64,000 bases of DNA from Phaeobacter gallaeciensis (lineage in GTDB: Bacteria > Pseudomonadota > Alphaproteobacteria > Rhodobacterales > Rhodobacteraceae), in assembly GCF_001678945.1 (NCBI RefSeq), contig NZ_CP015124.1, positions 1,733,501-1,797,500 of the forward strand. Direction: 5' to 3'. The number at the start of each line of letters is the position of its first letter. Position 1 is the stretch's first letter. The position numbers and the translations under genes are program-made. This document shows, in pieces, positions 46,024-58,972 of the stretch. A model generated the notes under the pieces. The model did not search any database. It was not told the DNA's origin and saw nothing but the letters and a program-made list of their open reading frames with translations.

Positions 46024-46107
46024 GCGGCGGAATGCTCCCGCCCGTCGGCAACAGGCCCAAGGCCTGCCCCCTCCCGTTGGGCATAGCGCCGCGCCGACGC
46101 GCGGCGG
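46024..46107 (-). repeat. Dispersed GC-rich repeat, copy 3 (inverted)
   Basis: Read on the minus strand it has CCGCCGCGCGTCGGCGCGGCG, then GCCCAACGGGAGG, a central palindrome GGCAGGCCTTGGGCCTGTTGCC, and GACGGGCGGGAGC. The order of blocks is the same as in the copies at 31829-31914 and 58981-59057. It begins 15 bases behind the mbfA stop. Confidence 0.6.
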
Positions 46108-46564
46108 GTTGCGCACCATCACCACCGGGGCACAGGCCGAAGCAGGAAAAACCATAGCCAAAGCATATCCCTGCCGTGCGCCAGCGCGGCGCGGTCCAAC
46201 GGGAGCCCTGCATGTTTCATGAAGAGGCGACGGGCGGGAGGGGCGCGCCTTACCCTAATCGCAGTCACTGCTGCGGCGGGCTTGAAAGCCGCGAGGTTTC
46301 GCCAGACATATCCTGACAACACCCCGGCGATCCAACGTACCGCTACTTGTTTCCCAATGTCAGACAGGCAGTTCGATTTTGCAGAAATCAAAAAAACATA
46401 TAGTTTTAAAGTAGTTTCAATTCACTACACGACGTACAGCACGTCGCCTGTTGTGCGTCTACTGCCTCAGTACCCCCAAGGGACGAAAGCCCGTTTTCCA
46501 CAGGCTATCCACGAATTAGCCCACAGGGATTTCCAGATGGCTTTGTGATCCGGGAACACGGTAT

Positions 46565-46603
46565 TTTCTGTCACGGGCCGACGCAGGAAGCATCTGACAG
46601 AAA
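46565..46603 (+). promoter_or_regulatory. Nine-base inverted repeat before the small ORF
   Basis: TTTCTGTCA at 46565-46573 is exactly inverted as TGACAGAAA at 46595-46603, with a 21-base loop. It ends 43 bases before the ATG of the 53-codon ORF. It could be a leader hairpin, a terminator of an unseen RNA, or a protein-binding site. Confidence 0.4.
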
Positions 46604-46646
46604 CCAGCGTTTGGCCCCTTGAGAACTGTCAACAATAGGATGACTA

Positions 46647-46808
46647 ATGAACAAATCTTCCTGCAAACAACAGAAATCCAACCTCCTAGGCATCAAAAGT
46701 AAGACGCGTATTGGAGAGGTGAGCATTCTAATGCGCACCAGCAGCCCTGCATTGATCGGCTTCACCGTCGCAGCCGGTTTGGCGTTCTGGTGGATGATCC
46801 TCGGCTAA
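46647..46808 (+). CDS. Small single-pass membrane protein candidate, 53 residues
   Basis: The frame from ATG 46647 has AGGA six bases upstream, a near-ideal ribosome site. The product has a basic N-terminal half (MNKSSCKQQKSN, then KSKTRIGEV) and a C-terminal hydrophobic segment of about 17 residues (PALIGFTVAAGLAFWWMILG) at the very end, the layout of a tail-anchored or small single-pass membrane protein. A second ATG at 46731 would give only the membrane part (25 residues). No family is recognised. It stands alone between mbfA and the AEC gene. Confidence 0.5.
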   Translation: MNKSSCKQQKSNLLGIKSKTRIGEVSILMRTSSPALIGFTVAAGLAFWWMILG

Positions 46809-46986
46809 AACATATTGGTCAGGCGCCTTTGAGGGGGGCCTCTATCTCCTCCCTCACCGCCTGTTTGATGGTCCCGAATGCCGTTACGGCCAGTACATCC
46901 ACCAGCCTACTGCAAACCCGGGCCGAAAATGCCAGCCGACGCAATCAGGCTTTTCGTTTTGGTAAAATCAGGTTACCAGTTCAGCG

Positions 46987-47916
46987 ATGGCTGACATATT
47001 CTTCAGAACCCTGCCCTTCTTTGCGATCATCGGCCTTGGCTACTGGGCCGGGCGCACGCGGTTCTTCACCGAAGAGGCCACGGCCTATCTGACGAAATTT
47101 GTCTTCTTCTTCCCACTTTCGGCGATGATTTTCCGCTTTGCCGCCAACCTGTCCTTTGCCGAGGTCTTCGATCCCAACCTGATCCTCGGCTATCTGGCAG
47201 GCACCGTCGCGGTCTACCTTATCGCCACGGCGGTGGCGGCCCTCAGGGGTCTGGATGTGCCCACCGCAGCGGTCGAGGCGCAATGCGCCGCCATCGGCAA
47301 CGTCGGCTTCCTCGGGTTGCCGATGATGGCGATCCTGTTCGGCGAAGCCTCCATCGGGCCGATGATGGTGGTGCTGAGCGTCGATCTGGTGGTGTTCTCC
47401 TCGCTCATCGTCATCCTGATCAATGCCGGGCGCGGATCAGGTCTGGGGCCGCGCACCCTGAAACTGGTCGCAATGGGACTAGTGCGAAATCCGATGATCG
47501 TGGCCATCGTCGCCGGGCTGGCCTGGTCCGCCTCGGCGCAGCCGATCCCGGCGCCGGTCAATGATTTCCTGTCGATCCTCGGCGGCGCCGCCACCCCCGG
47601 CGCGCTTTTTGCCATCGGCGCCTCGCTGGCCTCGAAATCGGCCGAGCGCATGCAGGTTGCCGTCTGGCTCAGCTTTGCCAAGCTGGTGCTGCATCCGCTC
47701 TGCGTTGCCATTGGCGTGTTGTGGCTGGTGCCCGTCGCCAGCTTTCCGGCCTCGGTGGCCATCGCGGCAGCCTCGCTGCCGGTGGCGGGCAATGTCTACA
47801 TGCTGGCGCAGCATTACAACGTCGCGCCGCACCGGGTTTCAGCGGCGATTCTGATTTCGACCGCGCTGTCGATCCTGACCGTACCGCTGGCTATCGCCTG
47901 GGCGTCTGGACTTTAA
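46987..47916 (+). CDS. AEC-family transporter (auxin efflux carrier-like)
   Basis: This 309-residue membrane protein has about ten hydrophobic segments in two halves, with the conserved GYWAGR near 17-22 and QCAAIGNVGFLGLPMM near 98-113 that mark AEC carriers (malonate, malate and other organic acid transporters). It is the normal length. The ribosome site is weak. It is not clearly in an operon: the next gene is 134 bases downstream. Substrate unknown. Confidence 0.83.
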   Translation: MADIFFRTLPFFAIIGLGYWAGRTRFFTEEATAYLTKFVFFFPLSAMIFRFAANLSFAEVFDPNLILGYLAGTVAVYLIATAVAALRGLDVPTAAVEAQCAAIGNVGFLGLPMMAILFGEASIGPMMVVLSVDLVVFSSLIVILINAGRGSGLGPRTLKLVAMGLVRNPMIVAIVAGLAWSASAQPIPAPVNDFLSILGGAATPGALFAIGASLASKSAERMQVAVWLSFAKLVLHPLCVAIGVLWLVPVASFPASVAIAAASLPVAGNVYMLAQHYNVAPHRVSAAILISTALSILTVPLAIAWASGL

Positions 47917-51901: not shown

Positions 51902-52522
51902 ATGCCCATCGACGCCGTCGTTTTCGACATTGGCCGCGTGCTGATCGAATGGAACCCCGAGGCCTTCTTTGACGCCCGCCTCGGCCCAGAGCGCCGCAAG
52001 AGGCTGTTTGCCGAGGTCGATCTGCACGGGATGAATCTGGGCGTGGACCGCGGCGATGATTTCCGCGCCTCGGTCTACGGGCTGGCCGAGCGTCACCCGG
52101 AGTGGTCCGAGGAAATCCGCCACTGGCACGACAGCTGGATCGAAATGGCTTCTCCCGAGATCCCGCACTCGGTGCGACTGATGCGAGCGCTACAGGCCCG
52201 CGACATCCCAGTGTTTGCCCTGACCAATTTCGGCGTCGGCACCTTTGCCGTGGCGCGCCAGACCTATCCGTTTTTCGATGAATTCGATCGGGCCTTCGTG
52301 TCGGGCGATCTGCGCACCATCAAGCCCGAGCCCGAGATCTACGCGCATCTGGAACGCGACACAGGCATTGCGCCGGAGCGCCTGCTGTTCACCGATGACC
52401 GCCCCGAAAACATTGACGCCGCCGCGCAACGCGGCTGGCATACCCATCTATTCACCACACCCGACACCTGGGCCGCGCGCCTGGTGGCAGAGGGGCTGTT
52501 GACCCCAGAGGAGGCAAAATGA
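51902..52522 (+). CDS. HAD-IA family phosphatase (YihX-like)
   Basis: This 206-residue hydrolase has motif I DIGRVLIEW near 9-17, motif II FALTNFG, the motif III lysine in TIKPEPEIY, and motif IV FTDDRPENIDAA. The DxG form of motif I resembles YihX-type sugar phosphatases, and length agrees. The substrate is unknown. Its stop overlaps the next gene (ATGA), so the two proteins are probably made together. Confidence 0.85.
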   Translation: MPIDAVVFDIGRVLIEWNPEAFFDARLGPERRKRLFAEVDLHGMNLGVDRGDDFRASVYGLAERHPEWSEEIRHWHDSWIEMASPEIPHSVRLMRALQARDIPVFALTNFGVGTFAVARQTYPFFDEFDRAFVSGDLRTIKPEPEIYAHLERDTGIAPERLLFTDDRPENIDAAAQRGWHTHLFTTPDTWAARLVAEGLLTPEEAK

Positions 52523-53436
52523 GCATTCCATCCATCGGTTTCAAAGAGGGCGAGGCCCTGCTGGACTGGGTCGGCTTCACCGAGGCGCTGGCCAAGGGGC
52601 ATGATCTGCCCAAGGCGGAAATCGGCGATACTTTTCTGTACCGCGATCCCGACACGCTGCTCAGCCGCTCCGCCTGGATCGATGGCATGGGGCTGGCCGT
52701 AAAGACGGCGACGATCTTTCCCGGCAACCCCAAGGCGGGCAAGCCGATGGTCAATGGCGCGGTCTGTCTTTACTCCGATCAGGACGGTACCCTGGACGCG
52801 CTGGTGGATTTCCACCTGGTGACCAAGTGGAAGACCGCGGGCGACAGCCTGCTTGGCGCCATGCGTCTGGCCAACCCCGACAGCCGCGACATCCTGATCG
52901 TCGGAGCGGGTACCGTCGCCGGATCGCTGGTCGAGGCCTTTGGTGCCGCCTACCCCCGCGCCCAGATCCGGGTCTGGAACCGCACCCAGTCCAAGGCCGA
53001 AGAGATGAAGGCCAGCTATCCGCAGATCGAGGTCGCCGCCGATCTTGAAGCCGCCGTGCGCTCGGCCGATATCATCGTCACCTCCACCATGTCATCGACC
53101 CCGGTGGTTCAGGGCGCATGGCTGAAACCCGGCCAGCACCTGAACCTGATCGGTGCCTATCGCCCCGACATGCGCGAGACCGATGACGAGGCGCTTTGCC
53201 GCGCGCGCATCTATTGCGACAGCTTCGACACCACGCTGGATCACATCGGTGAGTTCAAGATCCCGCTGGCCGAAGGCGTCATCCAGCGCGGCGATGTGCT
53301 GGCGGATTTCTATTCCCTCGACAGTTTCCCTGCCTATGATCCGGAGGCGATCACCCTGTTCAAGAACGGCGGCGGCGCCCATCTGGACCTGATGACGAGC
53401 CGCCACATTCTGGAGAAATGGCGCGCGAAGGGCTGA
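52519..53436 (+). CDS. Ornithine cyclodeaminase / mu-crystallin family protein
   Basis: This 305-residue NAD(P)-dependent enzyme of the OCD/mu-crystallin family has the substrate segment SRSAWIDGMGLAVKTATIFPGN near 49-70, the Rossmann motif VGAGTVAGSLVEA near 125-137, and YCDSF near 232. Members include ornithine cyclodeaminase, alanine dehydrogenase and ketimine reductases, so the substrate is open. It overlaps the HAD phosphatase gene by four bases. Confidence 0.82.
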   Translation: MSIPSIGFKEGEALLDWVGFTEALAKGHDLPKAEIGDTFLYRDPDTLLSRSAWIDGMGLAVKTATIFPGNPKAGKPMVNGAVCLYSDQDGTLDALVDFHLVTKWKTAGDSLLGAMRLANPDSRDILIVGAGTVAGSLVEAFGAAYPRAQIRVWNRTQSKAEEMKASYPQIEVAADLEAAVRSADIIVTSTMSSTPVVQGAWLKPGQHLNLIGAYRPDMRETDDEALCRARIYCDSFDTTLDHIGEFKIPLAEGVIQRGDVLADFYSLDSFPAYDPEAITLFKNGGGAHLDLMTSRHILEKWRAKG

Positions 53437-53605
53437 CGTGCGGCCAATAATCAAAGCCTATGAAATATTGAAGGGACAAGGAGTAAGCCTGATCAATTCT
53501 CGATCTCGCCAGAGGAGCTGCGGTTTTCTGACGTCCTGTCGATGCAAGTGACCTTTGAGCCCGAAGATCGAACAGCATCAGGGTTGGAGGCCAAGGCGCG
53601 CGACA

Positions 53606-54628
53606 TCACGCACGCGCGTCTCGCAGGTACTCCAACCCAATCTCACCAGATTTTTCAAGGAAGCTCAGGACACTAAGAGTGAAACGGTTCTCCTTGCTTG
53701 GATCGAGGACGGGTTCACCATCGACCACCGTGATGCCATCAAACATCCGAGTGAATTGGCTTTGCCTTGCCTCTGACATGGTCCAGTCAGCATCAAAGGC
53801 AACGCCGTTTTCCGGCTGAACGACCAGCCCTTCTCCAGCAGTATCCAGTGTCGCATAGCCTTTATCATAGTTGGCGGCATGTACGCTGGAGAAGACGTCA
53901 ACCTGGAGTCTCAACTCGCCACGCTGGAATTCGTCCCGCCGTTTGGCCAGAAGATCGGCGCGTATTGCCGCCAAATCATCCTCTTGTAGCGGCTCGCCAA
54001 GCTCCGTCCGTTCCGTGGCATCCCCCGCGAATTGCCCGAACTCATCACTGCGCGCCATCTCAAACGTGGTTTTGATTGCATTCATTTGCATATCGACCAT
54101 CGCGTTGATCTGATGATCGATGAGCTCTTCTTCGGTCATGCCTACGTACTGCTCACCAAACAAGATCGACCGGGCATTACTGAGCATCTCTGCGCCCTGC
54201 GACGCAAGGGATGACTGCAGGCTGAATTTCATCTGCAACAGACCGGCTGCTTTTGTCTCATCGGACAGCTTCTGAGATTGCTCAAGCTCCAAATCGGACA
54301 GTATCGTGTCCTCCGGCAGGCCTTCTCCTGGTTCAAGTTCAAGATCCTGATTTGCCAGCCCGCGGAAAACCGCGCCAATAGTCTCCAACTCATTCCTGAC
54401 GAGAGATTGGATCTTTTCGAGAACATCCTGCGTCTTTCGCGACAGCGAGGCCGAGCCAACCGACGTAACCCTTGGATCAGAATAGACGCCAGTCATGTCT
54501 GTGCTGACACCACGGCTAAAAACACTGGCCGGGCCGGGCGATGCAGCAGGTTGTCCAGCCGGATCAGCCGCCTTGGGCTCTTGAAATAGCGAAGTCGTGT
54601 AAGTGCTAAAAGTATTATTGATTTGCAT
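53606..54628 (-). CDS. Unrecognised 340-residue protein
   Basis: No family is recognised. The product is acidic and mostly helical. The first 45 residues are Ser/Thr/Pro-rich and look disordered (opening MQINNTFSTYTT); the middle (about 60-200) is rich in Gln, Glu, Met and Leu, for instance EEELIDHQINAMVDMQMNAIK. No signal peptide or membrane segment is seen. GAGGT lies five bases before the ATG, and a perfect palindrome lies 49 bases upstream. Base composition is lower in GC than the neighbours, suggesting transfer. The N-terminus loosely recalls flagellar or secreted proteins, but this is not evidence of function. Confidence 0.65.
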   Translation of the reverse strand: MQINNTFSTYTTSLFQEPKAADPAGQPAASPGPASVFSRGVSTDMTGVYSDPRVTSVGSASLSRKTQDVLEKIQSLVRNELETIGAVFRGLANQDLELEPGEGLPEDTILSDLELEQSQKLSDETKAAGLLQMKFSLQSSLASQGAEMLSNARSILFGEQYVGMTEEELIDHQINAMVDMQMNAIKTTFEMARSDEFGQFAGDATERTELGEPLQEDDLAAIRADLLAKRRDEFQRGELRLQVDVFSSVHAANYDKGYATLDTAGEGLVVQPENGVAFDADWTMSEARQSQFTRMFDGITVVDGEPVLDPSKENRFTLSVLSFLEKSGEIGLEYLRDARA

Positions 54629-54676
54629 GGTTTACCTCACGATACGGCGGCCGAGCCTCGAATTGACCCATCCACT

Positions 54677-54691
54677 GTATCACAGTGATAC
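54677..54691. promoter_or_regulatory. Perfect palindrome upstream of the unrecognised gene
   Basis: GTATCAC at 54677-54683 and GTGATAC at 54685-54691 are exact inverted copies around a single A. The site is 49 bases before the ATG at 54628, a normal place for a repressor operator. No regulator gene lies next to it. Confidence 0.5.
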
Positions 54692-54892
54692 CCATAAAAA
54701 CGGGTAAACGATGCAGGATACAATCGTTAAAGTTGTCTTGGGCGACATGCCAGCACGGCTGCTTCCGTCACACGACGTGATGCTCAAGGCTAGCACCCAG
54801 GTTCAAAAATCATCGCGGAGCTAAGAAGCATTCTTGGACGTTACGCCGCGAAGCCGACACTGCTGCGGCATTCGGCACCGGCTGAATTCACC

Positions 54893-56143
54893 TCACGCCG
54901 CCACGCTCCCCAGCGGGCGTTCCCGCACCGGCAAATGCACGATGGCGCTGAAGGCCCCGACGGCGACACCGATCCACCACACGAAGGTGTAATCGCCATA
55001 GGCATCATACATCCGCCCCCCCAGCCAGACGCCCAGGAAGCTGCCCAGTTGGTGGCTGAAGAAGACGATCCCGTAAAGCGTCCCCATATAGCGCAGCCCG
55101 TAAATATGCGCGACAAGGCCCGACGTCAGCGGCACCGTCGCCAGCCACAGGGAGCCCATGACGATGGAAAAGACAATCACCGACGTCGGCGTAATCGGCA
55201 CCAGGATGAAGGCCGCCGCCGCGATGGTCCGCCCGGTATAGATCGCCGCCAGCAGGTATTTCTTGGAGTAGCGGTTGCCCAGATATCCCGCCAGCAGGGT
55301 GCCCCCCACATTGGCCGCCCCGATCAGCGAGATCGCAACCGCCCCCAGCGCCGAGGTCGAAGTGATCCCGAGGCTGTAGAGCGCGCCGCCCGGCATGATC
55401 GGCCCGCACATCTCGGTCACGAAGGCCGGGAAATGCGCGGTCACGAACGCCAGCTGATAGCCACAGCTAAAGAATCCGAGGAAGATCAGCGTATAGGACG
55501 GATCCTTGAAGGCCTTGATCAGGATGGTGCCCATGCTCTCTTCAAGCTCAGATTTGCTCGCCATCTGCGGCGCGCGCATAAGCGGCAGCGTCAGGATCAG
55601 CGCCAGCACCACGCCTGCAAAGATCAGGAACACGGTCTGCCACGTCAGGAAGGACAGCATCCATTCCGCCCAGGGCGCGCCAAAGATTTGCCCGGCAGAG
55701 CCTGCCGCCGTGACAATCGCCAGCGACATCGAGCGGTTTTCATCCGAGCTGGCCCGCCCCACGACCGCCAGAACCACGCCAAAGCCGGTGCCCGCAATGC
55801 CAAAGCCCACCAGCCATTCATAGGCCTGCATCTGGAACGGCGTCACCGCGCCTGCGCTCAGCACCAGCCCCGCCGCATAAGTAAGCGCGCCAAGGATGAT
55901 GGCCTTTCTGTCACCGATCTTCTCGGCCACCGCGCCAAAGATCGGCTGCCCGATCCCCCAGGCCAGGTTCTGGATCGCGATCGCCAGCGAGAACTCCGCG
56001 CGCAGCCAGCCGAACTCTTCGGCGATGGGGATCTGGAACACCCCGAACGAGGCGCGCACCGCAAAGCTGACCATGATGATCACGCAGCCCACGATCAAAA
56101 CGGGGGTAAACAAGGGTGTTTTCTGTGCCGCTGCGCTGCTCAT
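54893..56143 (-). CDS. MFS transporter (OFA/monocarboxylate-like)
   Basis: This 416-residue protein has about twelve hydrophobic segments. It contains FGAVAEKIGDRKAI near 68-81 (the loop 2-3 signature) and GYLGNRYSKKYLL in the second half. The start FAVRASFGVFQIPIAEEFGW resembles the oxalate/formate antiporter and monocarboxylate branch of the MFS. GGAGG lies seven bases before the ATG. It sits between two lower-GC genes. Substrate unknown. Confidence 0.82.
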   Translation of the reverse strand: MSSAAAQKTPLFTPVLIVGCVIIMVSFAVRASFGVFQIPIAEEFGWLRAEFSLAIAIQNLAWGIGQPIFGAVAEKIGDRKAIILGALTYAAGLVLSAGAVTPFQMQAYEWLVGFGIAGTGFGVVLAVVGRASSDENRSMSLAIVTAAGSAGQIFGAPWAEWMLSFLTWQTVFLIFAGVVLALILTLPLMRAPQMASKSELEESMGTILIKAFKDPSYTLIFLGFFSCGYQLAFVTAHFPAFVTEMCGPIMPGGALYSLGITSTSALGAVAISLIGAANVGGTLLAGYLGNRYSKKYLLAAIYTGRTIAAAAFILVPITPTSVIVFSIVMGSLWLATVPLTSGLVAHIYGLRYMGTLYGIVFFSHQLGSFLGVWLGGRMYDAYGDYTFVWWIGVAVGAFSAIVHLPVRERPLGSVAA

Positions 56144-56254
56144 TCCGGGTCCTCCAAGTCAGAGCTGCGACGGTAGGCATTGCGGCCCCGGGGTCAATTC
56201 AAGAAATCTGCGCACTCACATAAGGAAAATTGATGTGAGGGTTTGGATGTTGCG

Positions 56255-57772
56255 TCAACCTTGCCCCAGCAGAGCCTTGGCTCCAGCCCAAGCCTCCTTA
56301 GCCCTCATCATGATTGGAGTGACCCATGCTTCGAACCCCGTACCATAATGCGCGGCGAGAGTCAGAATGGTGTCGGAGTTGGCCAAGAACCATCCCACTA
56401 GGGCAGATCCAGCTTCCCCCAGTGGCGCCGTAGCCATCTGGCTGAGAACAAACCCACCGACAACGATTATGGCATTCCGGTTCTGATCCCTCTGCCCCGA
56501 CTGCAACCGCTCCAAATGACGCGCGTGGTCGTGGAACAGCTGCGACAGCTCGCGAATACCTTCGCCAAAGGCCTCGGGCGTTCCTGCAATCGCACCGGAC
56601 AGCGCATCCTGCGCAGGCTGAATCTCAGGCTGCGGCGCGGCTGCATATCGGGCAGCGCGTGCCTCTGCCGCCTCCACATCCGGGTTATCCAGAAACAGCG
56701 ATGGACCAAGTTGCAGGACTCGCTCCAAGGCGTCCACCAGATCGGGGCCAAAGGCCTCTTCCCCTTCCCGCTCGCCCCGACGATCACAAACACCCCGCAG
56801 GGCTTCATGTTCAAAGTAGAGATCCAGCATATCCAGTTCATCAAAGTCCCGATCCGCGTGGACGCGATATTGGCGGACCTGTTCGGCAAGGCGATAATGC
56901 TGGTTTCCCGCCAGTTGCCAAAGCGTCGTCAGGGCTGTGATCAGCCGATCATGCGCTTTGCGTTTGACCCGATCCTGCCGCTCCGCCTCGGTCGGGAAAG
57001 AAGCGACAAGATCGGCCCGGCCATCCTCGGCGATTTCAACGGCCATGCTGTCGGACTGATCGGGGTGTTCCGTCGGTAGCGGCGGCCAATTGTCCGCAAC
57101 CTCGTTCAGGTAGTCGAGGGTTTTCTGTGTTCGCTCCTGATCATCTTCGAGCACTGAAAGTTCTGCCAGCCTTGGGTCAAGATGAGTGGCAGGAGTATCA
57201 AAATACGCGAGCCCTGTCGCAAGCTCACTATCCTGTATCAGCGACGATAAATGCCGAATTGGTCGCAAGTCCCGAATAGATGAATAAGTTACACTCAGCC
57301 ACTCAAGCCTTGTGCAGTCCGACAGTGGGCTAATATCCTCAACCGGTGTTTCATCCAGTGTTATTGACCTAAGGTTCGATAGGCCCTTGAGGACCCGAAC
57401 ATCCTTCACAGCTGTCTGGTCAAGAAACACGACACGCAGTCTATGTAAGTCGGTTAATGGATCAATATCAGATACTTGAGTATTAACAAACGAAATTAAT
57501 TCTAACGCGGTGAGATCGCGCAATGGCGCTAGATCCGACACTTCCGTTTCATCAATTTCAAGAATAGTGAGATGTCTCAACTTGCTAACAATACCAAGGT
57601 CAGACACTCTCGTATTCGAAAGCTTCAGCGTCTTGATACTTGTCAGCCGCCCCAGTTCGACAGGCAGTTCTTCAAGATCCTCTAAATCTGAAAGGTCGAG
57701 ATCTCTCTGACCGGCCTCCTCTGCCGCGATGATCATGCGACGGGCCTCTTCGAAATGCTCTTCTGCGCTCAT
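56255..57772 (-). CDS. Leucine-rich-repeat protein with helical and membrane-type C-terminal region
   Basis: This 505-residue protein has six to seven leucine-rich repeats of 22-23 residues at about 24-175, each of the form LxxLxxLxLxxTxVxDxxPL, the internalin type. A helical region (about 200-430) with acidic and arginine-rich stretches follows, then two hydrophobic segments at about 434-450 and 456-475, which may insert in the membrane. There is no signal peptide. The DNA for the repeats (about 57240-57640) is visibly richer in A+T than that for the C-terminal half, so the gene looks mosaic. Role unknown; internalin-like repeats bind proteins. Confidence 0.7.
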   Translation of the reverse strand: MSAEEHFEEARRMIIAAEEAGQRDLDLSDLEDLEELPVELGRLTSIKTLKLSNTRVSDLGIVSKLRHLTILEIDETEVSDLAPLRDLTALELISFVNTQVSDIDPLTDLHRLRVVFLDQTAVKDVRVLKGLSNLRSITLDETPVEDISPLSDCTRLEWLSVTYSSIRDLRPIRHLSSLIQDSELATGLAYFDTPATHLDPRLAELSVLEDDQERTQKTLDYLNEVADNWPPLPTEHPDQSDSMAVEIAEDGRADLVASFPTEAERQDRVKRKAHDRLITALTTLWQLAGNQHYRLAEQVRQYRVHADRDFDELDMLDLYFEHEALRGVCDRRGEREGEEAFGPDLVDALERVLQLGPSLFLDNPDVEAAEARAARYAAAPQPEIQPAQDALSGAIAGTPEAFGEGIRELSQLFHDHARHLERLQSGQRDQNRNAIIVVGGFVLSQMATAPLGEAGSALVGWFLANSDTILTLAAHYGTGFEAWVTPIMMRAKEAWAGAKALLGQG

Positions 57773-57889
57773 GGGCTGTACTGAAATCTTTTCACTTTCC
57801 TATGACGGGTCCACCTTTACACAGCGACACAGGCCCTGTCATGCTGCAAACCGCACCAGCGCGCCTTTTCAACCGCACGTCCCCGCGTT

Positions 57890-58972
57890 ATGGCTGACCC
57901 CATGACCCAGGTAAGCGCGCTTTATCAGTCCCGCAGCGAGGCAGGCCAGATCCGCCCGGATCCGGCGCAGCAGGCTGTTCTGCCGGAATTTGACCGTATT
58001 GCCCAAGGCCTCATGGCGCCGCCGGTGAAACGCGGCCTCTTCCGCAAGGCTACTCGGGAAGAGGTCAAGGGCCTCTACCTCTGGGGCGGCGTCGGGCGCG
58101 GTAAATCCATGTTGATGGATCTCTTTGTCGATAGTCTGGACGGGATCCCGGCGCGGCGGGTGCACTTCCATGCTTTCATGCAGGAGATCCACGCCAAGAT
58201 GCACGAGGCGCGCCAGAGCGGCGTGCAGGATACCCTCGCGCCGGTGGCAAAGGAGGTCGCCGAGTCGGTGCGCCTTCTGGCCTTTGATGAGATGCAGATT
58301 ACCGACATCACCGATGCGATGATCGTCGGGCGGCTGTTTGAATCCCTGTTTGAGGCAGGCGTCACCGTGGTCACCACCTCGAACCGGGTGCCGGATGATC
58401 TTTACAAAAACGGCCTCAACCGCCAGCTCTTCCTGCCCTTCATCGATCTGATCAAGGAGAAGATGCAGGTCTGGGAAATGGTCAGCCCGGTCGATTACCG
58501 GCAGGACCGGCTCAAGGGCTCACCGGTCTATTTCTCGCCTGTGAATGCCGACTCCCGCGCCCAGCTCCGCGCCATCTGGGAGGATCTGTCGGGCGGTGAT
58601 GCCCAGCCCCTGACGCTTGAGGTGAAGGGCCGCGAGGTCGTGCTGCCCGGTTTCAGGAATGGCGTGGCAAGGGCAAGTTTTTATGACCTTTGCGGCAAAA
58701 TGCTGGGGCCGGGCGATTATCTGGCCATCGCCGAAGAAGTGAAGGTGCTGGTGCTCGAGGATATCCCGCGCCTGTCCCGCAGCAACTTCAACGAGGCAAA
58801 GCGTTTCGTCACCCTGATCGATGCGCTCTACGAGGCGCAGGTGCGGCTGATCTGCACCGCCGCGGCCGAGCCGGAATATCTATACGTCGAAGGCGACGGT
58901 GCCTTCGAGTTCGAGCGCACCGCCTCGCGCCTGCGGGAAATGCAAGACAAGGATTGGGGACAGGACGGCTGA
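57890..58972 (+). CDS. zapE: Cell division ATPase ZapE (AFG1 family)
   Basis: This 360-residue AAA-type ATPase has Walker A GGVGRGKS at 66-73, Walker B LLAFDEMQITD, and the sensor region VTTSNRVPDDLYKNGLNR that marks the AFG1/ZapE family. In E. coli ZapE binds FtsZ and is needed for division under heat or low oxygen. ATG 57890 or 57902 could start it; no strong ribosome site separates them. It is followed by a copy of the dispersed repeat and then the convergent folC. Confidence 0.88.
   Translation: MADPMTQVSALYQSRSEAGQIRPDPAQQAVLPEFDRIAQGLMAPPVKRGLFRKATREEVKGLYLWGGVGRGKSMLMDLFVDSLDGIPARRVHFHAFMQEIHAKMHEARQSGVQDTLAPVAKEVAESVRLLAFDEMQITDITDAMIVGRLFESLFEAGVTVVTTSNRVPDDLYKNGLNRQLFLPFIDLIKEKMQVWEMVSPVDYRQDRLKGSPVYFSPVNADSRAQLRAIWEDLSGGDAQPLTLEVKGREVVLPGFRNGVARASFYDLCGKMLGPGDYLAIAEEVKVLVLEDIPRLSRSNFNEAKRFVTLIDALYEAQVRLICTAAAEPEYLYVEGDGAFEFERTASRLREMQDKDWGQDG

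What the first reader, a model, noticed from the sequence alone, without database searches (positions are those of the whole stretch)
53606..54691. Unrecognised protein controlled by a perfect palindromic operator
The 340-residue protein matches no family known to me, is lower in GC than its surroundings and has a 15-base perfect palindrome (7-1-7) 49 bases upstream. This looks like a transferred, tightly regulated accessory gene.
Basis: partly seen in the sequence, partly recalled or inferred. Interest (0 to 1): 0.5.

Follow-up and report, generated by a model that had tools for sequence, protein, structure and literature searches.

The report
Patchy accessory gene in Roseobacter-type bacteria
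A real but function-unknown protein gene, found here and there among Roseobacter-type bacteria, carries a DNA inverted repeat upstream that one close relative preserves; it is a modest, lineage-restricted novelty rather than a new kind of system.

Summary
In detail: a 340-aa ORF (53606-54628, minus strand), GC 0.539 against 0.622 for the window, and a perfect 7-1-7 palindrome at 54677-54691, 48 bases from the ATG. The gene is real (dN/dS 0.12-0.36 in 13 of 15 pairs; two saturated) and belongs to a small, unnamed, fast-evolving family. Seven members were found: 2 of 4 genomes of the window's genus and 5 of 19 of a second genus. Its slot is variable: one sister genome carries hemerythrin/HupE-type genes there. 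The palindrome alone is weak evidence (about 5% chance in 120 nt). But in sister genome G296, GTATC-N5-GATAC recurs 48 nt upstream of the orthologue with both arms intact (10/10) and a changed centre (2/5), against 52-59% flank identity; it is missing upstream of the other five members. So the likely operator is 5-5-5 and genus-local; no regulator was identified. The predicted structure (pLDDT 81) is a helical core with an alpha/beta end and a low-confidence 58-residue N-tail whose first 16 residues are conserved. I read it as an accessory protein that docks, or is exported, through that tail (inferred). Function is untested.

The parts
53606..54628 (-). 340-aa protein gene of an unnamed, patchily distributed family seen in two Roseobacter-type genera
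   Evidence: ORF; seven homologues aligned, one of them truncated; dN/dS 0.12-0.36 in the 13 of 15 pairs with a finite estimate
54581..54628 (-). codons 1-16, conserved N-terminal motif M-Q-[IV]-[NS]-x5-Y-[TA]-x-S-L-F-Q (six full-length members) at the start of a low-confidence, probably disordered tail (residues 1-58)
   Evidence: mean majority-residue fraction 0.78 against 0.47 for residues 17-32; alignment; pLDDT under 50 for residues 1-58
53609..54454 (-). codons 59-340, confidently predicted folded part: helical bundle (about 64-235) and an alpha/beta end (about 240-340)
   Evidence: AlphaFold2 with 7 sequences, mean pLDDT 80.8, 280 of 340 residues at 70 or more
54677..54691 (.). perfect 7-1-7 palindrome GTATCACAGTGATAC; conserved core GTATC-N5-GATAC, likely operator
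   Evidence: only exact copy in the genome; arms 10/10 conserved in G296, 48 nt upstream of the ATG in both, centre 2/5
53437..54892 (.). low-GC variable segment between an ornithine-cyclodeaminase-family gene and an MFS transporter gene
   Evidence: GC 0.527-0.539; different content at the same place in G295, same gene in G296

Best explanation
This is an accessory gene of a small, fast-evolving protein family so far seen in two Roseobacter-type genera, sitting in a variable slot between two conserved metabolic genes. In the window's genus its transcription is probably controlled by a dimeric DNA-binding regulator encoded elsewhere, which would bind the inverted repeat GTATC-N5-GATAC 48 nt upstream of the start codon. 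The protein is acidic, with no membrane segment or Sec-type hydrophobic start. It most likely works by non-enzymatic binding: a conserved short motif at the start of a disordered N-terminal tail docks to a partner (perhaps an export apparatus), and the helical and alpha/beta body carries the effect. Shown: family, selection, patchiness, inverted-repeat arms kept in two species, motif conservation, low-confidence tail. Inferred: regulator, disorder, docking or export, and effect.
For: Identity to the window protein: G296 61%, L002 60%, G697 46%, G689 46%, G699 38%, G682 26%. Purifying selection. Patchy: 2 of 4 genus genomes, 2 of 394 family genomes, 5 of 19 in the second genus. Variable slot. 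Inverted-repeat arms 10/10 against 22/42 and 29/49 in the flanks. Tail: low confidence for 1-58; motif conservation; maximum 19-residue Kyte-Doolittle mean 0.57; K+R 29, D+E 57, no Cys.
Against: The site rests on one pairwise comparison and is missing upstream of the five members of the second genus. No sigma-70-like promoter was found in 53400-54900. The looser site has one other copy in the genome, inside an ORF, so no regulon and no autoregulated regulator gene points to its ligand. The G682 member lies beside an RTX-repeat gene, but that is one case and next to an IS66 transposase. No family match gives a function and the fold comparisons are inconclusive, so 'docking' is a guess from conservation and low-confidence structure.
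Confidence: 0.45

Rival explanations
1. The gene is a real lineage-restricted accessory gene, but the palindrome is a coincidence and no dedicated operator exists.
For: 10 perfect 7-1-7 palindromes in the window; about 5% of shuffled 120-nt stretches hold some 7-bp-arm repeat; the site is absent upstream of five of seven members.
Against: In G296 both 5-bp arms are fully kept at the same distance while the centre changed; 10 of 10 at 51/91 flank identity is about 0.3% by a simple product estimate of mine.
Confidence: 0.25
2. A secreted effector or exoprotein: the N-terminal motif is an export signal and the body acts outside the cell, perhaps on competitors or hosts.
For: Conserved 16-residue start in a low-confidence tail, fast divergence (61% identity between window and G296 where the neighbouring MFS and OCD proteins are 95% and 93%), patchiness, an RTX-repeat gene upstream of the G682 copy.
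Against: No known signal was identified; the three neighbouring proteins scanned are not secretion parts; the RTX neighbour was seen in 1 of 7 members.
Confidence: 0.2
3. A phage-derived or phage-defence gene parked in an insertion hotspot.
For: Variable slot with different content in a sister genome; low GC.
Against: No relative of P0001 in 50,697 phage records at E 0.1 or in two viral-contig scans; no PADLOC match for the 3 members scanned; PHROGs rows weak, one member each; no tRNA in the window; no integrase among the three neighbours scanned.
Confidence: 0.08
4. Recent horizontal import into this genome.
For: Low GC; synonymous divergence from the G296 copy (dS 0.86) is about twice that of the flanking genes (0.44, 0.43); absent from 2 of 4 genus genomes.
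Against: Same position and neighbours in G296; all seven members are low in GC, so the composition is a family trait; no donor found in plasmid, phage or viral collections.
Confidence: 0.2

Closest known systems
Taxonomically restricted (ORFan-type) accessory genes of bacteria
   Same: Narrow, patchy distribution, fast divergence, low GC, no database family, but purifying selection.
   Different: A confident structure model, a conserved N-terminal motif and an inverted repeat kept in one relative define this member more closely than usual (my judgement).
Single-operator control by a dimeric helix-turn-helix regulator (GntR, TetR, MarR and similar; recalled types, from no call)
   Same: Short inverted repeat tens of bases upstream of the start codon, arms kept and centre free in the one comparison available.
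   Different: No adjacent regulator among the three neighbours scanned and no second non-coding site found in the genome; the regulator is unknown. Four spellings of the site gave 0 papers in the held library.
PF23887 Phage_Gene47 (best Pfam row)
   Same: 21 residues (293-313) align weakly.
   Different: 14.4 bits against a cut-off of 27; 1 of 7 members matches.

Membership tests
PF23887 Phage_Gene47 | whole-protein score at or above the curated cut-off of 27 bits | tested here: not met
   14.4 bits, 21 residues, 1 of 7 members
Horizontally acquired accessory gene | patchy presence among close relatives | tested here: met
   2 of 4 genus genomes; 5 of 19 in the second genus
Horizontally acquired accessory gene | composition unlike the host genes | tested here: met
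   GC 0.539 against 0.622; GC3 0.584 against 0.82-0.84 for two neighbours; but shared by all seven members
Horizontally acquired accessory gene | mobility genes or tRNA beside it, or an identifiable donor | tested here: not met
   the three neighbours scanned are OCD, MFS and LRR proteins; no tRNA in the window; no plasmid or phage relative
Repressor/operator-controlled gene | inverted repeat upstream conserved in orthologues | tested here: inconclusive
   conserved in 1 of 6 other members, the only same-genus one
Repressor/operator-controlled gene | regulator gene next to the site or with its own copy of the site | tested here: not met
   no regulator family among the three neighbouring proteins scanned; the only other copy in the genome lies inside an ORF
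Repressor/operator-controlled gene | protein binds the site and changes transcription | not testable with these tools
   needs wet-lab work
Any solved fold | clear structural match of the model | tested here: inconclusive
   Foldseek PDB best E 0.072, viral best E 0.027; second look best Z 5.9, rmsd 7.9, 145 aligned, below the level the tool calls meaningful for helical models; residues beyond about 241 barely tested
Anti-phage defence protein | match to a known defence model | tested here: not met
   0 families for the 3 members of A1 scanned; the other 4 members were not scanned

The most novel reading that the evidence does not exclude
The conserved start M-Q-[IV]-[NS]-x5-Y-[TA]-x-S-L-F-Q followed by a disordered linker is an export or docking signal of an undescribed class in Roseobacter-type bacteria, carrying a rapidly evolving body whose fold is unassigned here, switched by a dedicated single-site regulator.
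Probability: 0.12. Interest if true: 0.55.

Novelty: new member of a known kind. Interest (0 to 1): 0.27.

Why it matters
Many lineage-restricted bacterial genes have neither a structure model nor a regulatory clue (general knowledge). This one has seven members, a confident model and an upstream site kept in one relative, which makes it a workable case for asking what such genes do. It does not by itself change what is known about gene regulation.

Tried and rejected
Weak profile hits in four further family genomes (E 0.001-0.006, 31-81 residues) and one class genome (E 0.003) were rejected: with the seven-member profile the family tally is 2 of 394, window and G296 alone; by my own reading the L012 frame is an EF-hand-like protein and the L013 match lies on the strand opposite an OmpA-like ORF. 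The class hit was not retested with the deeper profile. With the better model no Foldseek match reached E 0.001 in PDB or viral models; globin-like, talin-like and copper-storage-like rows were not used. A regulon search by the site gave nothing usable; the contexts of the second G296 copy and of the G297 copy were not checked. Rfam found nothing in 52400-58000, ARAGORN no tRNA in the window, the sigma-70 scan of 53400-54900 no promoter (0.6 expected) and one terminator-like site inside the gene (1.6 expected). The MAFFT upstream alignment put the two repeats one base apart, and the ungapped flank counts (12/40, 14/47) understate flank identity; the gapped pairwise alignment replaces both. A 37-codon ORF beside the palindrome (54711-54821) was left aside: I did not notice it on reading the G296 upstream, without a formal test. 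A DNA search of 52000-57900 against plasmids matched 38 records in part, none over 80% of the query; the ten rows shown name MFS, HAD or ornithine cyclodeaminase features where annotated, and the best-covering ones are Ruegeria at 73-78% identity. A paper search on taxonomically restricted genes listed 8 of 44 papers, of which I saw titles and abstract starts only; none of these concerns this family.

Full report
What is there. The minus-strand ORF 53606-54628 encodes 340 residues. The palindrome GTATCACAGTGATAC lies at 54677-54691 with 48 bases between it and the ATG. GC is 0.539 for the gene and 0.527/0.538 for its two gaps, against 0.622 for the window. Third-position GC is 0.584 against 0.837 and 0.817 for the two flanking genes. 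At lower coordinates lies an ornithine-cyclodeaminase-family gene (52519-53436 +) and at higher coordinates an MFS transporter gene (54893-56143 -).

Is it a gene? Yes. Six members align over their whole length and a seventh, truncated one over its N-terminal two thirds. Of 15 pairs among the six full-length members, 13 give a finite dN/dS, between 0.12 and 0.36; two pairs are saturated at synonymous sites. The estimate is a simple Nei-Gojobori count and most dS values are high.

Who has it? By single-sequence search, 1 of 295 family genomes, the window's own, and 2 of 4 genomes of the genus. By three-member profile, 6 of 394 family genomes at E 0.01, four of them weak and short; 2 of 389 relatives at E 1e-4; 2 of 289 class genomes, one of them the window's own and the other weak. 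With the seven-member profile, 2 of 394 family genomes, both of the window's genus. These sets overlap and mostly take one genome per genus, so other genera with rare copies can be missed, as the second genus was. A scan of the named genome collection gave one relative, in Uncultured Roseobacter sp. isolate 2-944-J, L002. Its genus, whose kinship to the window's is not told, holds the gene in 5 of 19 genomes. No relative was found in plasmids with four members as queries, in phages with P0001, or in viral contigs with P0001 and the three-member alignment.

Where it sits. In G296 the gene lies between the same two neighbours as in the window. In G295 the same interval holds a hemerythrin-domain gene, a HupE/UreJ-type gene and two unassigned ORFs. 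In G297 the MFS gene alone aligns in the stretch taken. In the second genus three members (L002, G697, G689) sit between an EamA-type transporter gene and a Fur-family regulator gene (Pfam was run on the G697 neighbours, the other two are my reading of similar ORFs). G699 sits elsewhere. G682 sits behind an RTX-repeat gene and beside an IS66 transposase, with its C-terminal third missing. So it is an accessory gene in a variable slot. Low GC is common to all seven copies (0.512-0.600), which weakens it as a sign of recent import. The synonymous divergence between window and G296 (0.86) is about twice that of the MFS and OCD neighbours (0.44, 0.43), and protein identity is 61% against 95% and 93%: faster evolution or allelic replacement, not separated here.

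The palindrome. Alone it is weak: ten perfect 7-1-7 palindromes occur in the window, and about 5% of simple shuffles of the 120-nt upstream stretch hold some perfect 7-bp-arm repeat with gap 0-9. Its exact form occurs once in the genome. The looser GTATC-N5-GATAC occurs twice in the window's genome, twice in G296, once in G297, never in G295. In G296 one of the two is upstream of the orthologue, also 48 nt from the ATG. Arms agree 10/10, centre 2/5, flanks 22/42 upstream and 29/49 downstream. The other copy in the window's genome lies inside an ORF; I did not check the context of the second G296 copy or the G297 copy. The five members of the other genus have best matches with 2-4 mismatches in 300 nt; shuffles reach 2 or fewer in 9% and 3 or fewer in 58%. 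So a genus-local operator of the form 5-5-5 is likely, not proven; the extra two base pairs per arm that make the window's copy a perfect 7-1-7 are not kept as pairs in G296. No regulator family was seen among the three neighbouring proteins scanned, no sigma-70-like promoter was found, and the literature library holds none of four spellings of the site.

The protein. It has no membrane segment or Sec-like hydrophobic start (maximum 19-residue hydropathy 0.57), is acidic (57 D+E, 29 K+R) and has no cysteine. With seven sequences AlphaFold2 gives mean pLDDT 80.8; residues 1-58 are below 50, which I take as disorder, and 280 of 340 residues reach 70. Within the tail the first 16 residues are conserved (0.78) and the next 16 are not (0.47); even the 26%-identical G682 copy keeps S-L-F. 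Other parts of the protein are also well conserved (up to 0.72), so the contrast is with the linker, not with the whole body. That pattern suits a short docking or export motif, which is inference. No sequence family reaches significance; solved-structure sequences give two rows at E above 1 for the single sequence and none for the profiles; fold comparisons are inconclusive, and the C-terminal third was barely tested by them.

Verdict. It is a genuine lineage-restricted accessory gene with a plausible but narrowly conserved operator. Function and regulator stay unknown; the docking/export reading is a guess that can be tested.

Noticed in passing
window 56255-57772 (-): A 505-aa leucine-rich-repeat protein gene, third-position GC 0.555, in a second low-GC stretch; the G295 and G296 loci have no blastn match there (65 bp and about 700 bp between the flanks), so it looks like another accessory insertion.
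   Followed up: partly
L010 9099-11579 (G295): At the slot where the window has this gene, the sister genome carries a hemerythrin-domain gene, a HupE/UreJ-type gene and two unassigned ORFs.
   Followed up: partly
L004 5094-5660 (G296): A 188-codon ORF with no Pfam match lies where the window carries the LRR gene, so that slot is variable too.
   Followed up: partly
L025 479-2112 (G682): The most distant member (start chosen by homology at 1381) begins 200 nt after an RTX-repeat gene and lacks its C-terminal third beside an IS66 transposase.
   Followed up: partly
window about 46101-47300: Another low-GC stretch (0.536-0.545) around a gap without a long ORF that stands out, before a transporter-like gene.
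   Followed up: no
window 54711-54821 (+): A 37-codon ORF starting 19 nt beyond the palindrome, divergent from the gene; conservation not tested.
   Followed up: no
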